Origin: an uncultured Prevotellaceae bacterium
Lineage (GTDB): Bacteria > Bacteroidota > Bacteroidia > Bacteroidales > Bacteroidaceae
DNA: 64,000 bases
Assembly: GCA_902774815.1 (NCBI GenBank)
Contig: CACYJV010000010.1
Coordinates: 1-64,000 of the forward strand
Direction: 5' to 3'
Part shown: positions 10,173 through 51,690 of the stretch, piece by piece
Numbering within the stretch: position 1 is the stretch's first letter
Layout: every line of letters starts with the position of its first letter
Made by a program: the position numbers and the translations under genes
The notes under the pieces: generated by a model
What the model saw: only the letters and a program-made list of their open reading frames with translations
What the model was told of the DNA's origin: nothing
The model's database searches: none

Positions 10173-10345
10173 ACGGCCAGGGACGCTCCTGAAGAGTTGC
10201 CGTGAGGTTGCCCTTGAAATAGTTTGCAGGGATGCCTTGAAAGCAGCTTTTGAGAGTTTTTTGAAACAAGTTTTGAAACAACTACGACCATCAGCCATTG
10301 GTACACATCGTATCAGTGGCTGATTTTTTTGTGCACTGCCGTTCG

Positions 10346-10540
10346 ACACAAAGCGATGCCTTGCACCCCATAAAGCATAGCTCTTGTACCTCATGGAGCA
10401 TGCTTCTGTGCTCTATAGAGCAATGCCCTACCGCCATAAAAGCACTGCACTGGCAGCATAAAAGCACTGCACTGGCAGCATAACAACATAGCGTCAGCAC
10501 CTCTACAGCACCGCTTTGCAGGCATAACAGCACAGCCACG
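10346..10540. repeat. 22-bp degenerate tandem array, locus A
   Basis: About nine abutting 21-23 base units, each with a core resembling AAAGCA(T/C)(A/T)GC and ending in CAT. Two consecutive 22-base units (about 10437-10481) are identical, starting AAAGCACTGCACTGGCAGCA. It belongs to the same family as the arrays at about 27870, 39434 and 48637, but is the most diverged. Confidence 0.75.
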
Positions 10541-10641: not shown

Positions 10642-11935
10642 GGCTCATCCGACAAATGCGTAGTTTTTGTACCAAAAAGATGGATAGAAATGAAGATAGC
10701 TAAGATTTTATCACTACCTTTGGTTACCCCTAACTAAAGCGTAGAAATATGAATCCCAGCTATCTGTATCGGTGTCCGTCACCAAGAATGTACCAAAACC
10801 GAGTACAAAGGTAATCAAAATATTCATTATATTCAAACCCGCAAGGAGAATTTGTCCTGCCCTGAGTGTAAAAGTCGCAAGATAATCCGCTCAGGCAGCA
10901 TATATAGGGATATAAGAAGCGTTCCCGTGGGTCACAGGGAAACGATATTGCGAATGAAAGTGCAGCGTATAAAATGCAAGTCATGCGGATGCATCCGTCA
11001 GGAGGACATCCATTTTGTGACTGGCAAGCGGAGCTACACGAACAAGTTTGCCCGTTACGTTGTTGAGCTATCCCGTATAGGTACCATCAAGGACGTTGCA
11101 CGATTTCTCAACATCTCATGGGATACGGTCAAGGATATCCAGAAGAGATATCTTCAGCGTCACTACGGCAATCCGGACCTGAGCAGGCTTGAGTATATCG
11201 GGATAGACGAGTTTGCCGTACGCAAGGGCCATGCCTACAAGACAATCGTGGTGGATCTGCAGACAGGACACGTCGTGTACGTGGGCGACGGGAAAAGTGC
11301 TGATGCACTTGACAAGTTCTGGAAGAAGGCACGCAAGGCAAAGGCTGTGATAAAGGCTGTGGCAACGGACCTGTCCGCAGCCTTCATATCATCCGTAAGG
11401 GACAATGCCCCGGATGCGACGCTCGTCTTTGACCATTTCCACGTTGTCAAGCTGATGAACGACACGCTGGACAAACTCCGCAGGCAGGCATACAACCAGG
11501 AGGCCGACCTCATGAAGCGCAAGGTCCTCAAAGGAACCAGATGGCTGCTGCTCTGCAACGGTGAGGACATCTATGACTCATGCCACAGGAACAGGCTGGA
11601 GAATGCCCTTGAGATGAACGCACCCCTGATGAAGGGATACTATCTCAAGGAGTCGCTGCGGGAAATCTGGATGCAGGTCACAAAGGGACAAGCCCGGCAA
11701 GGACTCATGGACTGGGTAAAGCAGGCACAGGACTCAAAGGTGCCTTTGCTGCAGAAGTTTTCCATGACACTCATGGCGCATCAGAGTGGCATCCTTGCTT
11801 GGTACGACCATCATATCTCTACAGGAAAAATCGAGGGAATTAACAACAAAATCAAAACGATGAAACGGCAAGCATACGGATATAGAGACGAGAAGTTCTT
11901 TGAACTCAAAAAGCTACGCATTTGTCGGATGAGCC
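10642..11935 (+). mobile_element. Complete ISL3-family insertion sequence
   Basis: A 1294-bp element. The left end starts GGCTCATCCGACAAATGCGT (10642 on) and the right end is its exact complement ending at 11935. The inverted repeats are perfect for 22 bases and nearly so for about seven more. It is flanked by the 8-bp duplication TGAAATAA and encodes one transposase of DDE ISL3 type. Intact ends and flanking duplication point to a recent insertion. Confidence 0.93.
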
Positions 11936-11943
11936 TGAAATAA
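10852..11943 (+). CDS. ISL3 family transposase
   Basis: 363 residues from a TTG at 10852, the first usable start in this frame after the TGA at 10750. AAGGAG lies 3 bases before it. It has the N-terminal zinc ribbon (C-P-E-C near residue 3, C-K-S-C near 42), a helix-turn-helix region, and the DDE_Tnp_ISL3 core with G-I-D-E-F, F-D-H-F-H and the C-terminal G-K-I-E-G-I-N-N-K-I-K. ISL3 proteins catalyse cut-and-paste transposition. An ATG in another frame at 10749 opens a 21-codon stub, so the real N-terminus could require a frameshift. The stop codon and last codons lie in the host target duplication. Confidence 0.88.
   Translation: MSCPECKSRKIIRSGSIYRDIRSVPVGHRETILRMKVQRIKCKSCGCIRQEDIHFVTGKRSYTNKFARYVVELSRIGTIKDVARFLNISWDTVKDIQKRYLQRHYGNPDLSRLEYIGIDEFAVRKGHAYKTIVVDLQTGHVVYVGDGKSADALDKFWKKARKAKAVIKAVATDLSAAFISSVRDNAPDATLVFDHFHVVKLMNDTLDKLRRQAYNQEADLMKRKVLKGTRWLLLCNGEDIYDSCHRNRLENALEMNAPLMKGYYLKESLREIWMQVTKGQARQGLMDWVKQAQDSKVPLLQKFSMTLMAHQSGILAWYDHHISTGKIEGINNKIKTMKRQAYGYRDEKFFELKKLRICRMSLK
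11936..11943. repeat. Right target-site duplication of the ISL3 element
   Basis: TGAAATAA, identical to 10634-10641. Its last three bases are the TAA stop codon of the transposase. Confidence 0.85.
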
Positions 11944-12545
11944 TAGGATAATCGGGGAAGTAATTGCCTGAAATTGCCAGAAAATACCCTCAAAATAGGA
12001 TTATCTGATGGACGAATGGACCCTTTGCGCGTCCAACGGTTCTTCCATAGCGTTACAAACAAGAATAACAAGAAACACACAACTATCTTATTACCAACAT
12101 TTTACAATGTCAATTTCAAGTATTTCTTTAAGTCCTTCTCAGTCTCTTTCCCTCTCATTTATTACAACTGACAGTCTTACTTACAGTTAAAAAAAGGCCT
12201 ATGCATGCAATGTGGACGGAGAATGGTGAGAGGGTTGGATGGAGAATAGGAAGAGAATGAATAAGTAATAATACATAAATAATAGTAATAATAATAATGA
12301 TAATAATAATAAGAATAATACTATAATAATATTATATATTTATTAAATATTTATTATATTATTATATTTATACATATATATATATTATATATATACTATA
12401 TTTATTATATTTATTCATAAATATATAGTATTCTTCTATATTTTCTTACTCAGAGCATGCAAGCAGAGGTATAGGGGGTGCTGTTTTTTTAACTGTCATC
12501 TGTCATTGTAAGAATCGGCATTCCCCGCTCCGCCACGCCCCATCC
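11944..12545. other. Gene-free region with AT-rich segment
   Basis: About 600 bases without a gene. The first 200 are ordinary intergenic sequence. From 12162 to 12511 lies a segment with imperfect inverted ends and an interior made almost entirely of A and T. The remainder abuts the 3' end of the minus-strand hydrolase. Confidence 0.7.
12162..12511. mobile_element. Possible MITE-like element with extremely AT-rich interior
   Basis: The left end holds TTACAACTGACAG (12162-12174) and ACAGTTAAAAAAA (12183-12195). The right end holds TTTTTTTAACTGT (12484-12496) and CTGTCATTGTAA (12500-12511), which are the inverted complements with small gaps. Between about 12256 and 12444 the sequence is TAA/TAT microsatellite-like. 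It has no coding capacity. No target duplication is obvious, so the mobile-element reading is tentative. Confidence 0.4.
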
Positions 12546-27853: not shown

Positions 27854-27869
27854 ACGTTTTGATGCAATA

Positions 27870-28018
27870 AAACTATGCTTTGCAGGTTGCATCTCATTGC
27901 TTTGTAGCTTGCAAAGCAATGCCTTTAAGGCTCTATAGCATAGCTCTATACCCCTACAAAGCATAGTTCCTTAGCGTACGAAGCTATGGTGTTTAGCTTA
28001 TAAAGCGATGCTTTGTTT
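27870..28018. repeat. 22-bp degenerate tandem array, locus B
   Basis: Seven units of 22-23 bases. Examples begin AAAGCAATGCCTTTAAGGCT, ATAGCATAGCTCTATACCCC and AAAGCATAGTTCCTTAGCGT. The stretch 27872-27970 aligns unit by unit with 39503-39603 and 48706-48807. The function is unknown. Confidence 0.8.
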
Positions 28019-28020
28019 CG

Positions 28021-28504
28021 TGATTCCGTCTACTCGACTTAGTGATTCGTTGGGATTCGAACCCAAGGCACAGTGCGTTTTGGTCGGGGAATGAAAAAGA
28101 GAGCTCCCTTGTTAGGAAACTCTCTTGCGTAATTTCATTGACTTGAATTGGTGATTCCGTTGGGATTCGAACCCAAGGACCAGTGCGTTTTGGTCGGGGA
28201 ATGAAAAAGAGAGCTCCTATTGCAGGAACTCTCTTCCAGGTGATTCCGTTGGGATTCGAACCCAAGGCCCAGTGCGTTTTGGTCGGGGAAAGAAAAAAGA
28301 GAGTTCCATTAGCGGGAACTCCCTTTTGTGATTCCGTTGTGATTCGAACCCAAAGACCAGTGCGTTTTGGTCGGGTAAAGAAAAAGAGAGCTCCCTAAAA
28401 GAAACTCTCCCTTTTGTGATTCCGTTGGGATTCGAACCCAAAGACCAGTGCGTTTTGGTCGGGGAAAGAAAAAGAGAGCTCCCTAAAAGAAACTCTCCCT
28501 TTCG
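28021..28504 (-). repeat. 88-bp tandem array of tRNA-Arg 3' end plus terminator
   Basis: Five copies of the last about 27 bases of the adjacent tRNA-Arg (T arm and 3' acceptor strand) start at 28043, 28152, 28241, 28329 and 28417. A 9-base remnant lies at 28021. Spacings are 109, 89, 88, 88, and 88 to the tRNA itself. Each unit carries a hairpin with a T-run in minus-strand sense and a conserved GACCAAAACGCACTGG segment. Hairpin arms vary with compensation between units. Confidence 0.9.
28474..28497 (-). terminator. Terminator of tRNA-Arg (first unit of the array)
   Basis: On the minus strand GAGAGTTTC pairs with GGAGCTCTC (9 bp, with G-T pairs) and is followed by TTTTTC. The same hairpin recurs in each downstream unit, for example at 28386-28409, 28209-28233 and 28099-28124. 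Confidence 0.8.
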
Positions 28505-28578
28505 TGATTCCGTTGGGATTCGAACCCAAGGCCCACAGCTTAGAAGGCTGTTGCTCTATCCAACTGAGCTACGGAACC
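28505..28578 (-). tRNA. tRNA-Arg (anticodon UCU)
   Basis: A 74-base cloverleaf. The acceptor GGTTCCG pairs with CGGAATC (one G-U), the D arm is AGCTCAGTTGGATAGAGC, the anticodon stem ACAGC/GCTGT encloses CTTCTAA, and the T arm is TTGGGTTCGAATCCCAA. The discriminator is A and CCA is not encoded. It reads AGA codons. Its 3' end is duplicated in the downstream 88-bp array. Confidence 0.95.
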
Positions 28579-39404: not shown

Positions 39405-39438
39405 CTTTTGGTGCCGAGAACCTGCTCAGCACCAAAAG
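39405..39438. terminator. Hairpin downstream of the type IX plug gene
   Basis: Perfect 10-bp stem CTTTTGGTGC (39405-39414) / GCACCAAAAG (39429-39438) with a 14-base loop. The 3' arm runs directly into the first array unit. No long T-run follows, so it may be a processing or stability hairpin instead. Confidence 0.5.
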
Positions 39439-39649
39439 CATTGATTGATGCCCACCACCTCAATGCCTTATTGATGACGAAGCATTGATCCTTTGCCTAA
39501 AGAGCATTGCTTTTCAGGCTACAACTCATTGCTTTGTCAGTTAAAAAGCATTACTTTTAAGGCTCCAAAGCATAGCTTTATACCCCTACAAAGCATAACT
39601 CTGTACACTACAAAGTAATGAGTTGTAGCCTACGAATCGATGCTTTGTC
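39434..39649. repeat. 22-bp degenerate tandem array, locus C
   Basis: About ten units of 22-23 bases. Typical units begin AGAGCATTGCTTTTCAGGCT, AAAGCATTACTTTTAAGGCT and AAAGCATAGCTTTATACCCC. 39503-39603 shares unit order with loci B and D. Confidence 0.85.
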
Positions 39650-47139: not shown

Positions 47140-48309
47140 CTACTTACTTTTCGCTTCCGCTGGGAAAAGTACCCGTTCTCCTTCCTGTACATTATTGGCA
47201 CCGACTGTCACAATTCTGTCACCGACGTTCAAGCCACTCGTCACAATGAAATCCTGTCCGTTTCCTGCATCTTGCGTTGTGACGGTGACGGCAGTGGCTG
47301 TGCTATCGGCCTTTATTTTATAGACTAACGACTTGTCCTGAAGACGCAGCACGGCCGCCTGCGGTATCACCATCACGTCTTTCTTTGACGACGGCATCAC
47401 CACAGTGCCCTGAATGCCCGAGTAGAGCAATCCATTGGGGTTCGGGAAAGTAGCCTTACAGGCAATGGTTCCGGTCGTAGCGTTCACTATACCCGTGGCG
47501 CTACTGATTCGCCCCTTGTGTTCGTACTCCGTTCCATTCTTCAACACAAACGACACGTCGGGGAACAACTTCAATGCATCCTCAACCTTTGTGCTGTAGC
47601 CTGCAGCGAGGGCCTTTTCCAGTATCGACTCCGGCAGCGAGAACTCAGCTTCCATGTTGGTATTGCCGCTGACGATGGTCAAATGAGAGGCTGGCGACAC
47701 CTGATCTCCTGAGCGTACGGGTATTTCACCGATTACACCTGTGACAGGTGCCGTTATGGTGCAGAAACCGAGATTCACCTTGGCGCGATTCACTGCCGAC
47801 TGTGCCTGTGTGATAGAAGCCCTGGCCTGACTGACAGCCGCTTGTGCCTGCTTGTAACTATTCGAGGAATTCTCCAACATATAGTTACTCACAATCTTCT
47901 TCTCAAACAGGTTCTTATTGCTTTCATACTCTAGCTTCGCGCTGTTTTCCTGAGCCTGGGCTGCTTGCAAGTTGGCCCGGGCTGCCTGCAGGTTGGCCTG
48001 AGCAGCTTCCAACTCATGCTGGGCATTGCGTGAGTCGATAACAAAAAGGACCTGACCTTTTCGCACTTGCTGGCCCTCGCTCACACGAATCTGCAACAAC
48101 TGCCCGCTTACCTGTGGCGTAATCGTCACATCAGCCTGTCCCTTCAGCTTTGCGCTGAACTTTACTGGCACCGTAAGATCTTGCTTCTTCACGGTCATCG
48201 TTTCGTAAGACGTCTTCGTTTCCTTGGGCATGTCCAATCCACAAGACATAAGACAGCCGACAGCCGTGCAAACGACCACTGCCCACACCAAAGTTTTTTT
48301 GTTTTTCAT
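47140..48309 (-). CDS. RND efflux periplasmic adaptor (HlyD/AcrA family)
   Basis: 389 residues, lipoprotein signal with L-M-S-C. It has a beta-barrel and lipoyl half (V-T-I-T-P-Q-V-S-G-Q-L-L-Q-I) and an Ala/Gln-rich coiled-coil hairpin (about 90-165). The second lipoyl half (T-I-T-A-P-V-T-G-V-I-G) and the membrane-proximal domain complete it. It links the permease to the TolC-like channel. It is first gene of the three-gene operon; no local TetR- or AraC-type regulator is seen. Confidence 0.94.
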   Translation of the reverse strand: MKNKKTLVWAVVVCTAVGCLMSCGLDMPKETKTSYETMTVKKQDLTVPVKFSAKLKGQADVTITPQVSGQLLQIRVSEGQQVRKGQVLFVIDSRNAQHELEAAQANLQAARANLQAAQAQENSAKLEYESNKNLFEKKIVSNYMLENSSNSYKQAQAAVSQARASITQAQSAVNRAKVNLGFCTITAPVTGVIGEIPVRSGDQVSPASHLTIVSGNTNMEAEFSLPESILEKALAAGYSTKVEDALKLFPDVSFVLKNGTEYEHKGRISSATGIVNATTGTIACKATFPNPNGLLYSGIQGTVVMPSSKKDVMVIPQAAVLRLQDKSLVYKIKADSTATAVTVTTQDAGNGQDFIVTSGLNVGDRIVTVGANNVQEGERVLFPAEAKSK

Positions 48310-49002
48310 TACGTTGTAATTTCTTATAGTAAATATTCTTCCACGTCGTGAACGCCATCACATAGAGATAGAGTACGCAAACCATGATCATCGCAAAAGA
48401 CAATAGATCGCATTATTCGCAGCCTCATCTCTTGATACGTCCGATTTTCGGTGTAAAATTAAAAAAAAATGACGAAAAAAAGAACATCTGCTTGATTTTT
48501 TTTTCAAAAGCAAGCATAAAAGTGTTGTCATAGCCTCCATCTTCTCTTTTTAAGCATGAACATAACTACTTGTTGGTTGTTCATGTGAGTTCGGTGCCGC
48601 GAAGCTAAACAATCACCAAATTGCTGATTCTTACCATAAAGCACTACTTCGCTGCCTATAGCCCATTACTATCTCACTTAAAGACCATTGACTTTACATC
48701 TCTCAAGCATTGCTTTGCAGGCTACATCTCATTGCTTTGTCACTTACAGAGCAATGCTTTTAAGGCTTCAAAGCATAGCTCTATACCCCTATAAAGCATA
48801 GCTTTATATTGTAGAAAGCAATGCTCCATGATGTAGAAAGCATTGCTTTGTTTGGCAGTAAAGGAGTAAGGAGATGTTGAGTAAGGTACTGCCACCTCTT
48901 CCGTTTGCATTGAACCTATTGACTGACAAGGCATTGCGGTTCTGTAGAAAAGCGAAAGAGGCGGCAGCAAATACCGATCTTCAACTATAAAAATGCGAAA
49001 AA
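48310..49002. other. Gene-free region upstream of the RND operon
   Basis: About 690 bases. AT-rich leader (48310-48540), an inverted repeat CATGAACA/TGTTCATG (48555-48562, 48579-48586), the longest 22-bp array (about 48637-48860), then the 3' flank of the kelch-symporter gene. A long minus-strand frame across the array (48740-49411) is a shadow of the symporter gene. Confidence 0.7.
48637..48860. repeat. 22-bp degenerate tandem array, locus D
   Basis: About ten units of 22-23 bases with period kept through the whole tract. Units begin AAAGCATAGCTCTATACCCC, AAAGCATAGCTTTATATTGT and AAAGCAATGCTCCATGATGT, with near-palindromic AAAGCATTGCTTT cores. 48706-48807 is colinear with loci B and C. Confidence 0.85.
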
Positions 49003-51690
49003 CTATTCCAACGTCTTCCAAGTGAAGCCCTTCAAGGGGCGACGTTCGGGCCAAACGAGCGAGAGTAGCAGTGCAACGAGTGTGCTGACAACGATAGCGG
49101 TGAAGCCAAAGAGCAGGAAGTTGGCCGTGGTGCAGAAGTTCATCCAGAACACCGTTAGCGTTCCTGCCACAAACCCTACGAAGGCTGCGCGGGCACCGAT
49201 ACGCGGGAAGAAGATGCCCATGATGAACAGGGCACCTACAGCACCAGAGAGCAGACCGAGAATGGTGTTGAAATAGTCGAGCAGCGACTGGATGTTCATC
49301 GTGGCCATAAGGATGGCGATGAGCATGCCGATAAGTCCGCTGACGATGCCTGTCAGACGTGCCGTCTGCACAGTAGCCTTGTCGCTCAGCTGCGGGCGGT
49401 GCTTCTTCCAAATGTCAACAGTAAATGCTGTAGAGATGCTGTTGATATTCGATGAAATGGTCGACATTGTGGCAGCAAACACGGCAGCAATGAGCAGCCC
49501 TGCCACACCGGCAGGCAGTTGGCTCATCATGAAGAACGGGAAGATGGCGTCGGTCTTCTGCATAGTCAGGTCGGTGGCCATGGGATGGGTTTGGTAGAAG
49601 GTGTAGAGACCCGTGCCGATGGTGAAGAAAGCAATGGTTACGACGACCGACATCATACCGTTGGTGAGGATGCTGCGTGCTGCCGACCGCTCGTCCTTTG
49701 TGGTGAGATAGCGTTGGATGACGGTCTGGTCGCTGGTATAGGAGATGATGTTGTTGGCCAATCCACCGAGTATGACAACCCAGAACGTTGCCGTGCGATA
49801 GTCGAACGACCAGTCGAAGAGTCGGAACTTATCGTTGTCGCTGGCTATCTGGAAGAAGTCGGCAGGACCATTGCCCGTGTTGAAGATGAGGTAGGCGGCA
49901 GCAAGGAAGGCACCTCCCACGAGTATGATGCCCTGTACGACATCGCCCCAGACCACAGCTTCGACACCGCCCATGGTACAATAGATAATCGTTACCACAG
50001 CCATGACGACGATGCAAACATAGATGTCGATACCCGTAACGGCTGTCATGGCGAGCGACGGCAAGAAAAGCACAAGTGCCATGCGTGCCACCATGAACAC
50101 GATGAACAGAACCGATGCCATGAGCCGGATGGCATACGAGAAGCGATGCTCCAGATACTCATAAGCTGTTGTGACATTCAGCCGGCGGAAGAAAGGCAGG
50201 AAGTAGCGGATGACGGGGAACGACACGATGAGAATACAGATCTGCATGGGATAGTAGGTCCAATCGGTCATGTAGGCCTTGGCTGGTATCGACATATAGG
50301 TAATGGCCGAAAGCATGGTGGCAAAGATACTGATGCCTGCTGCCCACCACGGAATGCGATTGCCACCCTTGAAGAAATCTTCAGATCCCGACTCGCGTTG
50401 CATGAAGTAGTAGCCCAACAGGAGCATGGCGATGAGGTAGACTATGAGCACCAAGTAGTTGAGCCATCCGAATTGAGCCGTATAAGAGATGGTGAAACGG
50501 GTGGCATCGGCAGAGCGAACGCCCGGTTTCAGTTCGCCATTGACAATATAATAGGTATTAGCCGAATTGCCTTTCACCACAGCTGCGCCCGCACGGGCCA
50601 ACCGCTTGTCGGCATAGACATTCGACCAAGCACCAGTGATGGTGTTGTATACCAACAGTGAATCGTGGAAATGATACCACTCTACAGGGTGCATCAGGTA
50701 GTCGGGCTGTGGGTGTTGCAGGGCATTGTCGAACGTTTGTTTGTCGACACCACCGAAGAACAGCACATTGTCGGCACCGCAAGGCATGGCCGTGGCACCA
50801 ACAAGGGCAAACAGCCGCGAGGCGTCATCGTATTTGAGTTGGTTGTCATCCGTTGTAGTTGTGCTACGTTTGGGTTGGCCTAAACAAAGGTCGAAGGTAC
50901 GCAAGGCCTTCGTCTTCAGGTTCCAGGCGTAGCCTTGGGAACAAGACTCCTTCTCCACGGGATTGAAACCGCCAAAGAGTAGCAACTCCGGTCCATTGCA
51001 ACCATTCTGTACAGCCAGACAAGGTTGCAGGCAACCATGCCACGATGGGACTTCCTCGGCTGCGGCAAAAGTGGTCCACTTGCGGCTGGCCATATCGAAG
51101 GCATAGACAGAGGTGTTCAACTCGCCATCGGTCTGTCCGCCAGCCACATAGACGATACCTGCGGCAAAGGCTGCCGCCATCTGGTCAAGTCCTTTGGGAA
51201 GGCTGGGCAGAGGCTCACAACGACTACCGCCATCCTTCAGCATGAACACGTCACGCAGGGATGTCTTTCCATCGGAAGTTCCACCCATGCAGACGATACC
51301 ATCGGGCGTGACCACACTGGCTCCATAGGCCAAGGGACGAGGCAGCTGTCCCACGGAAACCCAACCGTGCGGATTGGCTGTAGAGAGCACAAAGACATCG
51401 GCATAGAAACGCTTCTCCCCTCCGCTGGCAGCAGAGGTATCGGGAAAGTTGCACCCACCTGCCACGATGAGCCACTCGCCATCCATGCCTGCAAAGGGAG
51501 CCGCCACACCCTGCAGACTGTCACCTACAGCCAACTGTGGCAGTTCCTCTGTTAGAAAACTATTGAAAAGCTTTTCATCATTCTTGTTTCCGCATCCTGC
51601 AACGATGAGCGTAATAAAGGAAATAACCAACAAAGAAATGCCTTTCAGACACGCCCTGTATATTTTACCGTATTCAGCCATTCTCACCAT
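49003..51690 (-). CDS. Kelch mutarotase-like / sodium:solute symporter fusion
   Basis: 895 residues. A lipobox-like V-A-G-C (C33) ends a hydrophobic N-terminus. Residues about 45-400 form a kelch beta-propeller of the cyclically permuted mutarotase family (I-V-A-G-G-C, V-C-M-G-G-T, Y-V-A-G-G-Q, L-F-G-G-F, F-F-G-G-V). About 405-890 is a complete SSS-family transporter (Y-F-M-Q-R, G-G-N-R-I-P-W-W-A-A-G-I-S). Related propellers epimerise sialic acid and SSS carriers import it, so uptake of a sialic acid or similar sugar is plausible. The exact substrate is inference. It starts 6 bases from the stop of the MFS gene upstream. Confidence 0.85.
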   Translation of the reverse strand: MVRMAEYGKIYRACLKGISLLVISFITLIVAGCGNKNDEKLFNSFLTEELPQLAVGDSLQGVAAPFAGMDGEWLIVAGGCNFPDTSAASGGEKRFYADVFVLSTANPHGWVSVGQLPRPLAYGASVVTPDGIVCMGGTSDGKTSLRDVFMLKDGGSRCEPLPSLPKGLDQMAAAFAAGIVYVAGGQTDGELNTSVYAFDMASRKWTTFAAAEEVPSWHGCLQPCLAVQNGCNGPELLLFGGFNPVEKESCSQGYAWNLKTKALRTFDLCLGQPKRSTTTTDDNQLKYDDASRLFALVGATAMPCGADNVLFFGGVDKQTFDNALQHPQPDYLMHPVEWYHFHDSLLVYNTITGAWSNVYADKRLARAGAAVVKGNSANTYYIVNGELKPGVRSADATRFTISYTAQFGWLNYLVLIVYLIAMLLLGYYFMQRESGSEDFFKGGNRIPWWAAGISIFATMLSAITYMSIPAKAYMTDWTYYPMQICILIVSFPVIRYFLPFFRRLNVTTAYEYLEHRFSYAIRLMASVLFIVFMVARMALVLFLPSLAMTAVTGIDIYVCIVVMAVVTIIYCTMGGVEAVVWGDVVQGIILVGGAFLAAAYLIFNTGNGPADFFQIASDNDKFRLFDWSFDYRTATFWVVILGGLANNIISYTSDQTVIQRYLTTKDERSAARSILTNGMMSVVVTIAFFTIGTGLYTFYQTHPMATDLTMQKTDAIFPFFMMSQLPAGVAGLLIAAVFAATMSTISSNINSISTAFTVDIWKKHRPQLSDKATVQTARLTGIVSGLIGMLIAILMATMNIQSLLDYFNTILGLLSGAVGALFIMGIFFPRIGARAAFVGFVAGTLTVFWMNFCTTANFLLFGFTAIVVSTLVALLLSLVWPERRPLKGFTWKTLE

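What the first reader, a model, noticed from the sequence alone, without database searches (positions are those of the whole stretch)
39434..39649. Dispersed family of 22-23 bp degenerate tandem arrays (locus C as the type copy)
Ten abutting units keep a 22-23 base period while their sequence drifts. Each has a near-palindromic AAAGCAT(T/A)GCTTT core followed by a variable part often ending CTAC. The same kind of array occurs at three other intergenic sites in only 64 kb (about 10346, 27870, 48637). The period is two helical turns, which would place the cores on one DNA face, as in a multimeric protein-binding array. It does not look like CRISPR (no exact repeats) or an IS. I know of no described system with this design; that it is undescribed is my impression, not a search result.
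Basis: partly seen in the sequence, partly recalled or inferred. Interest (0 to 1): 0.8.

Follow-up and report, generated by a model that had tools for sequence, protein, structure and literature searches.

The report
Tandem palindrome arrays capping bacterial genes
This gut-bacterium relative carries about forty short DNA arrays, each built of palindromic pieces repeated almost exactly every 22 bases near the ends of genes; they most likely act as two-way stop or end signals for gene copying, and we found no published description of them.

Summary
The window has four such arrays and its genome at least 41; 37 of these follow one plan: units at 22 bp, nearly always one 23-bp step at the same unit, conservation peaking there and fading outwards, almost no indels at 65% mean identity. 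Arrays of AAAGC-N3-GCTTT at 22 bp occur patchily in Prevotella, Bacteroides and related genera (90 of 398 genomes of the genus match), hardly in viral contigs. No called gene spans any of 194 arrays examined (15 overlap a gene end). In this genome they favour convergent gaps and avoid divergent ones. At one orthologous Bacteroides gap, 7 of 30 genomes have an array; 21 of the other 23 have a strong single hairpin there. In six of the seven, two neighbouring units pair into an uninterrupted 16-19-bp stem, and in five the pairing is full and survives changes on both sides. In the window's genome the most conserved block is a hairpin on one strand (94.8% of cells paired, variation mostly wobble). 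Best reading: tandem-hairpin, two-way 3'-end/terminator elements (inferred). No partner protein was found. New variant of the REP/BIME-like class.

The parts
39434..39649 (+). Type array C, ten units, between convergent genes (T9SS plug-domain protein and DUF4421 protein)
39567..39602 (-). Most conserved block of array C (units U0 and U+1 round the 23-bp step, TATACCCCTA); forms the conserved hairpin when read on the minus strand
10345..10520 (-). Array A, degenerate, weak match to the common plan (67.7 bits), between a Zn-peptidase gene and an ISL3-type transposase gene
27868..28015 (+). Array B, about seven units, next to a tRNA-derived tandem repeat
27935..27970 (-). Central hairpin block of array B
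48637..48850 (+). Array D, about ten units, downstream of the 49003-51690 minus-strand ORF (SSF/NANM) and upstream of the 47140-48309 minus-strand ORF (HlyD-like)
48770..48805 (-). Central hairpin block of array D

Best explanation
The arrays are tandem-hairpin 3'-end elements: two-way transcription terminators or transcript-end caps placed after stop codons, above all between convergent genes. Each unit is a 13-nt palindromic arm and a 9-nt loop, so any two neighbouring units can pair into a hairpin (5 + 3 + 5 pairs, plus one or two in the spacer). The period of 22 is arm plus loop. Shown: the location, the hairpin potential on both strands, the exchange with single hairpins at an orthologous Bacteroides gap, and the hairpin kept on one strand in the window's genome. 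Inferred: that the hairpins form in RNA and end or protect transcripts, and that extra units are spare hairpins. Not explained: why loop length is held so strictly.
For: Own genome: 15 of 38 array-bearing gaps are convergent against 8 of 87 other gaps (odds 6.4, p = 2e-4); 2 of 38 are divergent against 21 of 87 (p = 0.012). No called gene spans any of 194 arrays. Gap after a DUF4293-like gene (name recalled) in 30 Bacteroides loci: 7 have an array; 21 of the 23 others hold a 70-nt window folding at -23 kcal/mol or lower. L367 (array) and L369 (hairpin) share the stretch from the stop codon to the swap letter by letter. Units 1 and 2 are fully complementary in L363, L364 (ATA/TAT) and L366-L368 (ACC/GGT); uninterrupted stems are 16-19 bp in six of seven. 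16 of 26 Bacteroides-type arrays have exactly one neighbour pair with complementary middles, against 4.3 expected from pooled middles (0 of 2000; weaker by within-array shuffle, see against). Best 44-nt hairpin: median about -19 kcal/mol in 23 Bacteroides-type and 101 Prevotella-type arrays, shuffled -7.5 and -8.7. Own arrays fold better than dinucleotide shuffles, mean z -2.2 to -3.9. The own U+1/U0 hairpin on the minus strand has 94.8% of 481 cells paired; four much-varying pairs vary mostly as A/G opposite U.
Against: Shuffling unit order within Bacteroides-type arrays reaches the observed number of complementary pairs in 194 of 3000 (arrays with one: 47 of 3000); in Prevotella-type arrays shuffling gives more than observed (2994 of 3000), and neighbouring middles are more often the same than complementary (186 against 84 of 373). 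A strict rule (hairpin plus T-rich tail) rang in 0 of 7 array loci and only 6 of the 23 others; in own convergent gaps it rang in 4 of 12 with an array and 1 of 7 without. L361 has an interrupted stem. A consensus fold of 33 own arrays has 6 pairs on the plus strand (-1.85 kcal/mol) and, for 37, 6 on the minus strand (-4.38), none compensatory. Pair counts do not exceed column shuffles (485 of 500 at least as high), and the structure was drawn from these sequences. Own hairpins (-15.4, -16.7) exceed mono-shuffled (-11.2) only moderately. Fold z does not differ between strands (p = 0.12, 0.70). RNA hairpins would tolerate loop-length changes, yet there are almost none. Palindromic repeats fold well on both strands whatever their use.
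Confidence: 0.45

Rival explanations
1. A DNA-level nucleoprotein array: a dimeric, sequence-specific protein binds each AAAGC-N3-GCTTT palindrome; units two turns apart line the copies up on one face, nucleating at the conserved centre, and the filament blocks or insulates convergent transcription.
For: Spacing is held at 22/23 bp while sequence falls to 65% mean pairwise identity, with one visible indel in the 33 rows of A2. Conservation peaks at one unit pair and fades on both sides. Five of six within-unit arm pairs show no covariation in the own genome (5/9 slightly above shuffles, 4 of 500). A/T-tracts recur at 11 bp in four sets: own, Bacteroides, Prevotella, second family.
Against: No partner protein found among two families tested: Y1_Tnp is often absent; HU-HIG is in 36 of 36 genomes, though that model also rings in E. 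coli and so cannot separate. In Bacteroides the units pair with changes on both sides, which a binding site does not need. The four least alike own loci of 41 and four more rows were left out of the indel count. Periodicity follows partly from any 22-bp palindrome array.
Confidence: 0.3
2. A supercoil-handling site of the BIME-2 type: phased A-tracts about 11 bp apart wrap DNA gyrase (or another topoisomerase), which removes positive supercoils between convergent genes.
For: Convergent location; 11-bp phasing; a conserved centre with periodic arms resembles the 130-bp gyrase motif reported for E. coli (central part -16 to 19, 10.75-bp periodic sides; passages of PMC6379681). A universal enzyme would explain why no partner gene tracks the arrays.
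Against: G+C periodicity at 11 bp in the own genome is weak (2.2 times shuffled) beside 5.5 and 7.33 bp (5.3, 6.2), though 6.6 and 5.3 in Bacteroides and Prevotella. Strict AAAGC/GCTTT arms do not fit a degenerate wrapping motif.
Confidence: 0.1
3. Selfish or neutral dispersed repeats (MITE-like or mosaic), kept at gene ends only because insertion elsewhere is harmful.
For: Some own copies share a short stretch right of the last unit. A second 22-bp array family in two other genomes has inverted-repeat flanks by eye. Patchy distribution.
Against: Apart from that short stretch, no flanking homology round the own arrays. Near absence of indels at 65% identity argues for constraint. Y1 transposase absent in 11 of 18 array-rich genomes.
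Confidence: 0.15

Closest known systems
REP / BIME repeats (GTAG- and CGTC-tagged palindromic repeats, PMC3733652, passages read)
   Same: Short palindromic extragenic repeats, dispersed, mostly between convergent or co-directional genes, close to gene 3' ends; possible terminators, RNA stabilisers or supercoiling sites.
   Different: [quoted passage not shown] no constant GTAG or CGTC tag; Y1_Tnp absent in 11 of 18 array-rich genomes.
Intrinsic (Rho-independent) bidirectional terminators
   Same: At an orthologous Bacteroides gap the array stands where most others have one strong hairpin; two units form a 16-19-bp stem, in five loci with A's before and T's after.
   Different: Several tandem arms instead of one hairpin; fixed period; in Prevotella the neighbouring middles often do not match; a strict T-tail rule is not met; termination untested.
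CRISPR arrays
   Same: Palindromic repeats with variable spacers of constant length.
   Different: 13-bp degenerate repeat, 9-bp spacer, dozens of loci; cas genes were not searched for.
E. coli BIME-2 and gyrase sites (PMC6379681, passages read)
   Same: Periodic near 11 bp, near the ends of transcription units.
   Different: Strict sequence arms; weak G+C periodicity in the own genome; binding untested.

Membership tests
REP/RAYT (GTAG or CGTC repeats) | Tetranucleotide tag GTAG or CGTC at one end of the palindrome | tested here: not met
   No constant tag in the per-position profile of 680 units from other genomes or in the own-genome consensus; CTAC/GTAG is frequent only at some own units.
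REP/RAYT (GTAG or CGTC repeats) | Associated Y1 tyrosine transposase (RAYT) | tested here: not met
   PF01797 absent in 11 of 18 array-rich genomes (7 of these 11 at least 90% complete) and present in 9 of 18 array-free ones.
REP/RAYT (GTAG or CGTC repeats) | Extragenic, at gene 3' ends, convergent or co-directional | tested here: met
Intrinsic bidirectional terminator | Stable hairpin with A-run before and U-run after | tested here: inconclusive
   Long stems with A's and T's in Bacteroides L363, L364, L366-L368, but the strict T-tail rule rang in 0 of 7 array loci and 6 of 23 others. Own genome: hairpin yes, runs short.
Intrinsic bidirectional terminator | Ends transcription in vivo | not testable with these tools
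   No RNA data.
CRISPR array | Near-identical repeats of about 24-48 bp (range as given in PMC3733652) | tested here: not met
   13-bp degenerate cores at 22 bp
MITE | Terminal inverted repeats and sharp ends | tested here: inconclusive
   Own genome: almost no homology beyond the array, conservation fades instead of stopping. Prevotella illustrans copies do show end-like inverted repeats by eye. Target-site duplications not tested.
Known RNA family | Match to an Rfam model at the gathering score | tested here: not met
   Only a tRNA in the window.
Gyrase-type wrapping site | Phased 10-11-bp G+C variation over about 130 bp | tested here: inconclusive
   AAA/TTT strong at 11 bp; G+C weak in the own genome (2.2), stronger in Bacteroides and Prevotella (6.6, 5.3), absent in the second family (0.2).

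The most novel reading that the evidence does not exclude
A widespread but patchy chromatin-like system of Bacteroides, Prevotella and their relatives: a still unknown dimeric protein polymerises from a central high-affinity pair along rigid 22-bp palindrome arrays at the ends of transcription units, insulating neighbouring genes, with lineage-specific array sequences.
Probability: 0.25. Interest if true: 0.85.

Novelty: new variant of a known kind. Interest (0 to 1): 0.55.

Why it matters
Transcript ends in Bacteroidota are, to my knowledge, poorly charted compared with E. coli. If the arrays end transcripts in both directions, genomes of common gut, rumen and oral bacteria carry a repeated terminator design that annotation and genetic engineering in these bacteria should know. 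If instead a protein reads the 22-bp period, it would be a new insulating or chromosome-organising system. Both are testable in commensals such as Bacteroides xylanisolvens and Prevotella ruminicola.

Tried and rejected
REP/RAYT membership: no constant tag, Y1_Tnp often absent. HU-HIG as partner: genes of this family lie beside arrays in a Bacteroides module (four loci) and two prophage-type loci, but it is in 36 of 36 genomes. Gene-class association: 77 of 79 listed neighbours scanned (two short ones left out), no Pfam family in more than 3. Hairpin inside one unit: five of six arm pairs without covariation in the own genome; in 680 units of other genomes several pairs do exceed shuffles, but related arrays share variants and the units were chosen by their arms. 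Wobble asymmetry of left and right halves: strong count, but copies share ancestry and it does not follow gene orientation, so I give it no statistical weight. Replication-linked placing: 28 array places of G273 (rounded) are uniform round the chromosome, KS p = 0.63 and 0.78 (dnaA at base 609). Arrays with other arms in array-free genomes: none at 22 bp in 400 kb of three genomes, but that scan is weak (it caught 7 of 37 own loci and none in the window). Mobile carriers: array D has no match in plasmids or phages; four viral stretches, one of them (L096) inside a coding gene. Empty-site comparison in close relatives: none close enough; matches in the genus are mostly at 64-74% DNA identity. 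Strand difference of fold z-scores: none.

Rows dropped before counts: of 41 own loci, 39 passed 30 bits for the profile and 37 passed 100 bits for pair tests; L031, L043, L044 and array A fell below. A2 used 33 of the 37 (L027, L039, L040 and L042 left out by eye as most divergent); A3 used all 37. Of 96 Bacteroides genomes with a match, the 30 that had loci were compared; one of these (L360) is the genome the query came from. One more own-genome place seen (C12:4415-4557) was not fetched, so 41 is a lower bound. Gene calls are from a simple codon score of my own, not a full gene finder.

Full report
WHAT IS THERE. The array at 39434-39649 has ten abutting units with cores like AAAGCATTGCTTT, eight steps of 22 bp and one of 23. 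Three more arrays lie at about 10350, 27869 and 48638. BLAST against the window's own genome gives 48 matches, the query itself included. I fetched 37 further loci, 41 with those of the window; one search shows at least one more. A position weight matrix aligns 39 of the 41 above 30 bits and 37 above 100 bits.

A COMMON PLAN. Units recur in the same order, with position-specific sequence. The 23-bp step nearly always follows the same unit, AAAGCATAGCTYTATACCCCTAY. Information content peaks there and fades over about six units to the left and three to the right. Outside there is almost none; some copies share a short stretch just right of the last unit. In own loci, which were not chosen by spacing, neighbouring cores (at least 8 of 10 arm matches) lie 22 bp (116), 23 bp (36) or 21 bp (3) apart, with multiples at 44 and 66. 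In 33 aligned copies mean pairwise identity is 64.8%, yet only one copy shows an inserted base. Four of the 37 copies were dropped by eye as most divergent before that alignment, and four of the 41 loci were too unlike to enter it.

DISTRIBUTION. The pattern AAAGC-N3-GC, repeated at 22 bp, matches in 90 of 398 genomes of the genus. The own genome has 133 matches (both strands), G063 303, G327 227 and many none; the reversed control is near zero except in a few genomes, such as G291 with 26. By title all are Bacteroidia (Prevotella, Bacteroides, Mediterranea, Segatella, Hoylesella, Xylanibacter, Caecibacteroides and similar) except two contigs of one Kiritimatiellae assembly, which I did not check further. 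Viral contigs gave four stretches, one of them inside a coding gene; plasmid and phage records gave none with array D. A second 22-bp palindrome array family of other sequence exists in 2 of 60 genomes of another genus (Phocaeicola by my guess).

PLACE IN THE GENOME. No called gene spans any of 194 arrays; 15 overlap the end of one. Genes were called by a simple codon score. In own loci and the window 15 of 38 array-bearing gaps are convergent against 8 of 87 other gaps (p = 2e-4), and 2 of 38 are divergent against 21 of 87 (p = 0.012). In own co-directional gaps arrays lie nearer to the stop (median 71 bp) than to the next start (263 bp). Neighbouring genes are of no common class.

THE TURN TO HAIRPINS. 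Downstream of one Bacteroides gene (DUF4293-like, recalled; the gap is convergent by the rough gene call of L183), I compared 30 loci from 96 genomes with a match. Seven have an array. The other 23 have none; in 21 of these a 70-nt window of the same gap folds at -23 kcal/mol or lower, while L374 and L375 reach only -11.5; the array loci range from -20.7 to -35.1. A stricter rule with a T-rich tail rang in 6 of the 23 and 0 of the 7. Two genomes share the stretch from the stop codon letter by letter up to the point where one has a hairpin and the other the array (L369, L367). In six of the seven array loci two units pair into an uninterrupted stem of 16 to 19 bp; in L361 the stem is interrupted. 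Middle triplets are fully complementary in L363 and L364 (ATA/TAT) and L366-L368 (ACC/GGT), pair with a wobble in L360 (ATC/GGT) and with a mismatch in L361; the loop is inverted between L363 and L364. At a second gap (after gcvP, name recalled) the query species and 1 of 30 fetched loci have the array; the 29 others do not.

HOW GENERAL IS IT. 16 of 26 Bacteroides-type arrays hold exactly one perfectly complementary neighbour pair of middles (expected 4.3 from pooled middles, 0 of 2000; within-array order shuffle 194 of 3000 for pairs, 47 of 3000 for arrays). In 68 Prevotella-type arrays neighbour order gives fewer than shuffles do. The outermost spacer bases covary in the direction of a neighbour-unit hairpin: z = 3.7 in Bacteroides-type and 7.4 in Prevotella-type at positions 14/22; 5.1 in genus loci and 6.1 in the own genome at 15/21. 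The inner spacer positions do not, and each set shows it at one of the two outer positions only (related copies, so the z-values are not probabilities). Best 44-nt hairpins are about -19 kcal/mol in both groups against -7.5 and -8.7 shuffled, and -15.4 and -16.7 against -11.2 in the own genome. Own arrays fold better than dinucleotide shuffles (mean z -2.2 to -3.9), without a strand difference.

THE WINDOW'S OWN HAIRPIN. On the plus strand the consensus fold is almost empty. On the minus strand the central block forms a hairpin of 6 consensus pairs, none compensatory. Counted over 37 copies, a 13-pair structure that I drew from them has 94.8% of 481 cells paired, against 28 to 53% when slid. 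The four most variable pairs vary mostly as A/G opposite U, which is wobble on that strand and mismatch on the other. Observed pairing does not exceed column shuffles (485 of 500 as high). In 30 of the 39 own arrays with a called right-hand gene that gene is transcribed towards the array, on that strand (four of the 41 have uncertain orientation). The copies share ancestry, so this is suggestive only.

WHAT ARGUES FOR A PROTEIN ARRAY INSTEAD. RNA hairpins do not need a loop of fixed length, yet the spacing hardly varies. A/T-tracts recur every 11 bp (7.6 times shuffled in the own genome, 11.6 in Bacteroides, 21.1 in Prevotella, 6.5 in the second family). The E. coli gyrase motif has a central part and 10.75-bp periodic sides (passages of PMC6379681), but our G+C periodicity is weak in the own genome. 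Two candidate partners were tested: Y1_Tnp is absent in 11 of 18 array-rich genomes and HU-HIG is in all 36 genomes tested.

COMPARISON WITH THE LITERATURE. The nearest class is REP/BIME. PMC3733652 (passages read) reports such repeats between convergent and co-directional genes, near 3' ends, and CGTC repeats in Bacteroidetes among other phyla. [quoted passage not shown] Nine full-text searches listed no paper that describes 22-bp palindrome arrays in this group; most listed papers were seen as listings only, and papers outside that library were not seen. PMC7366714 (passages) predicts intrinsic terminators in B. thetaiotaomicron, also between convergent genes; the passages seen mention no such arrays.

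VERDICT. A real, patchy, undescribed (as far as searched) family of gene-end arrays. Terminator-like tandem hairpins are the best reading, fairly strong for the Bacteroides gap, moderate for the window's genome. The rigid period remains the unexplained part and keeps a phased protein array possible.

Noticed in passing
window 28151-28529: Tandem array of 4.3 copies of an 88-bp unit that repeats part of the adjacent tRNA gene (28505-28578, minus strand), close to array B.
   Followed up: no
window 10852-11943: ISL3-type transposase gene beside array A.
   Followed up: partly
window 12260-12426: AT-rich microsatellite-like stretch (AAT and TATATTTAT units).
   Followed up: no
L340-L359 (G584, G710): A second dispersed 22-bp palindrome array family of other sequence (CGGTTTCCATATCRAGAACGTA units) in two genomes of another genus, with inverted-repeat flanks by eye; of 13 distinct arrays 5 lie in divergent and 1 in convergent gaps.
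   Followed up: partly
   Followed up: partly
L363 and L364: The 9-bp loop between two complementary units is inverted between two Bacteroides genomes, a hint of inversion at small inverted repeats.
   Followed up: no
L097, L099 (one viral contig) and L082: Prophage-like loci with four-unit arrays that begin at or overlap a stop codon; two of the three next to an HU-HIG-like gene.
   Followed up: partly
window 39411-39443: Inverted repeat TTTTGGTGC...GCACCAAAA just before and into array C, with T-run first and A-run last, the reverse of a terminator.
   Followed up: no
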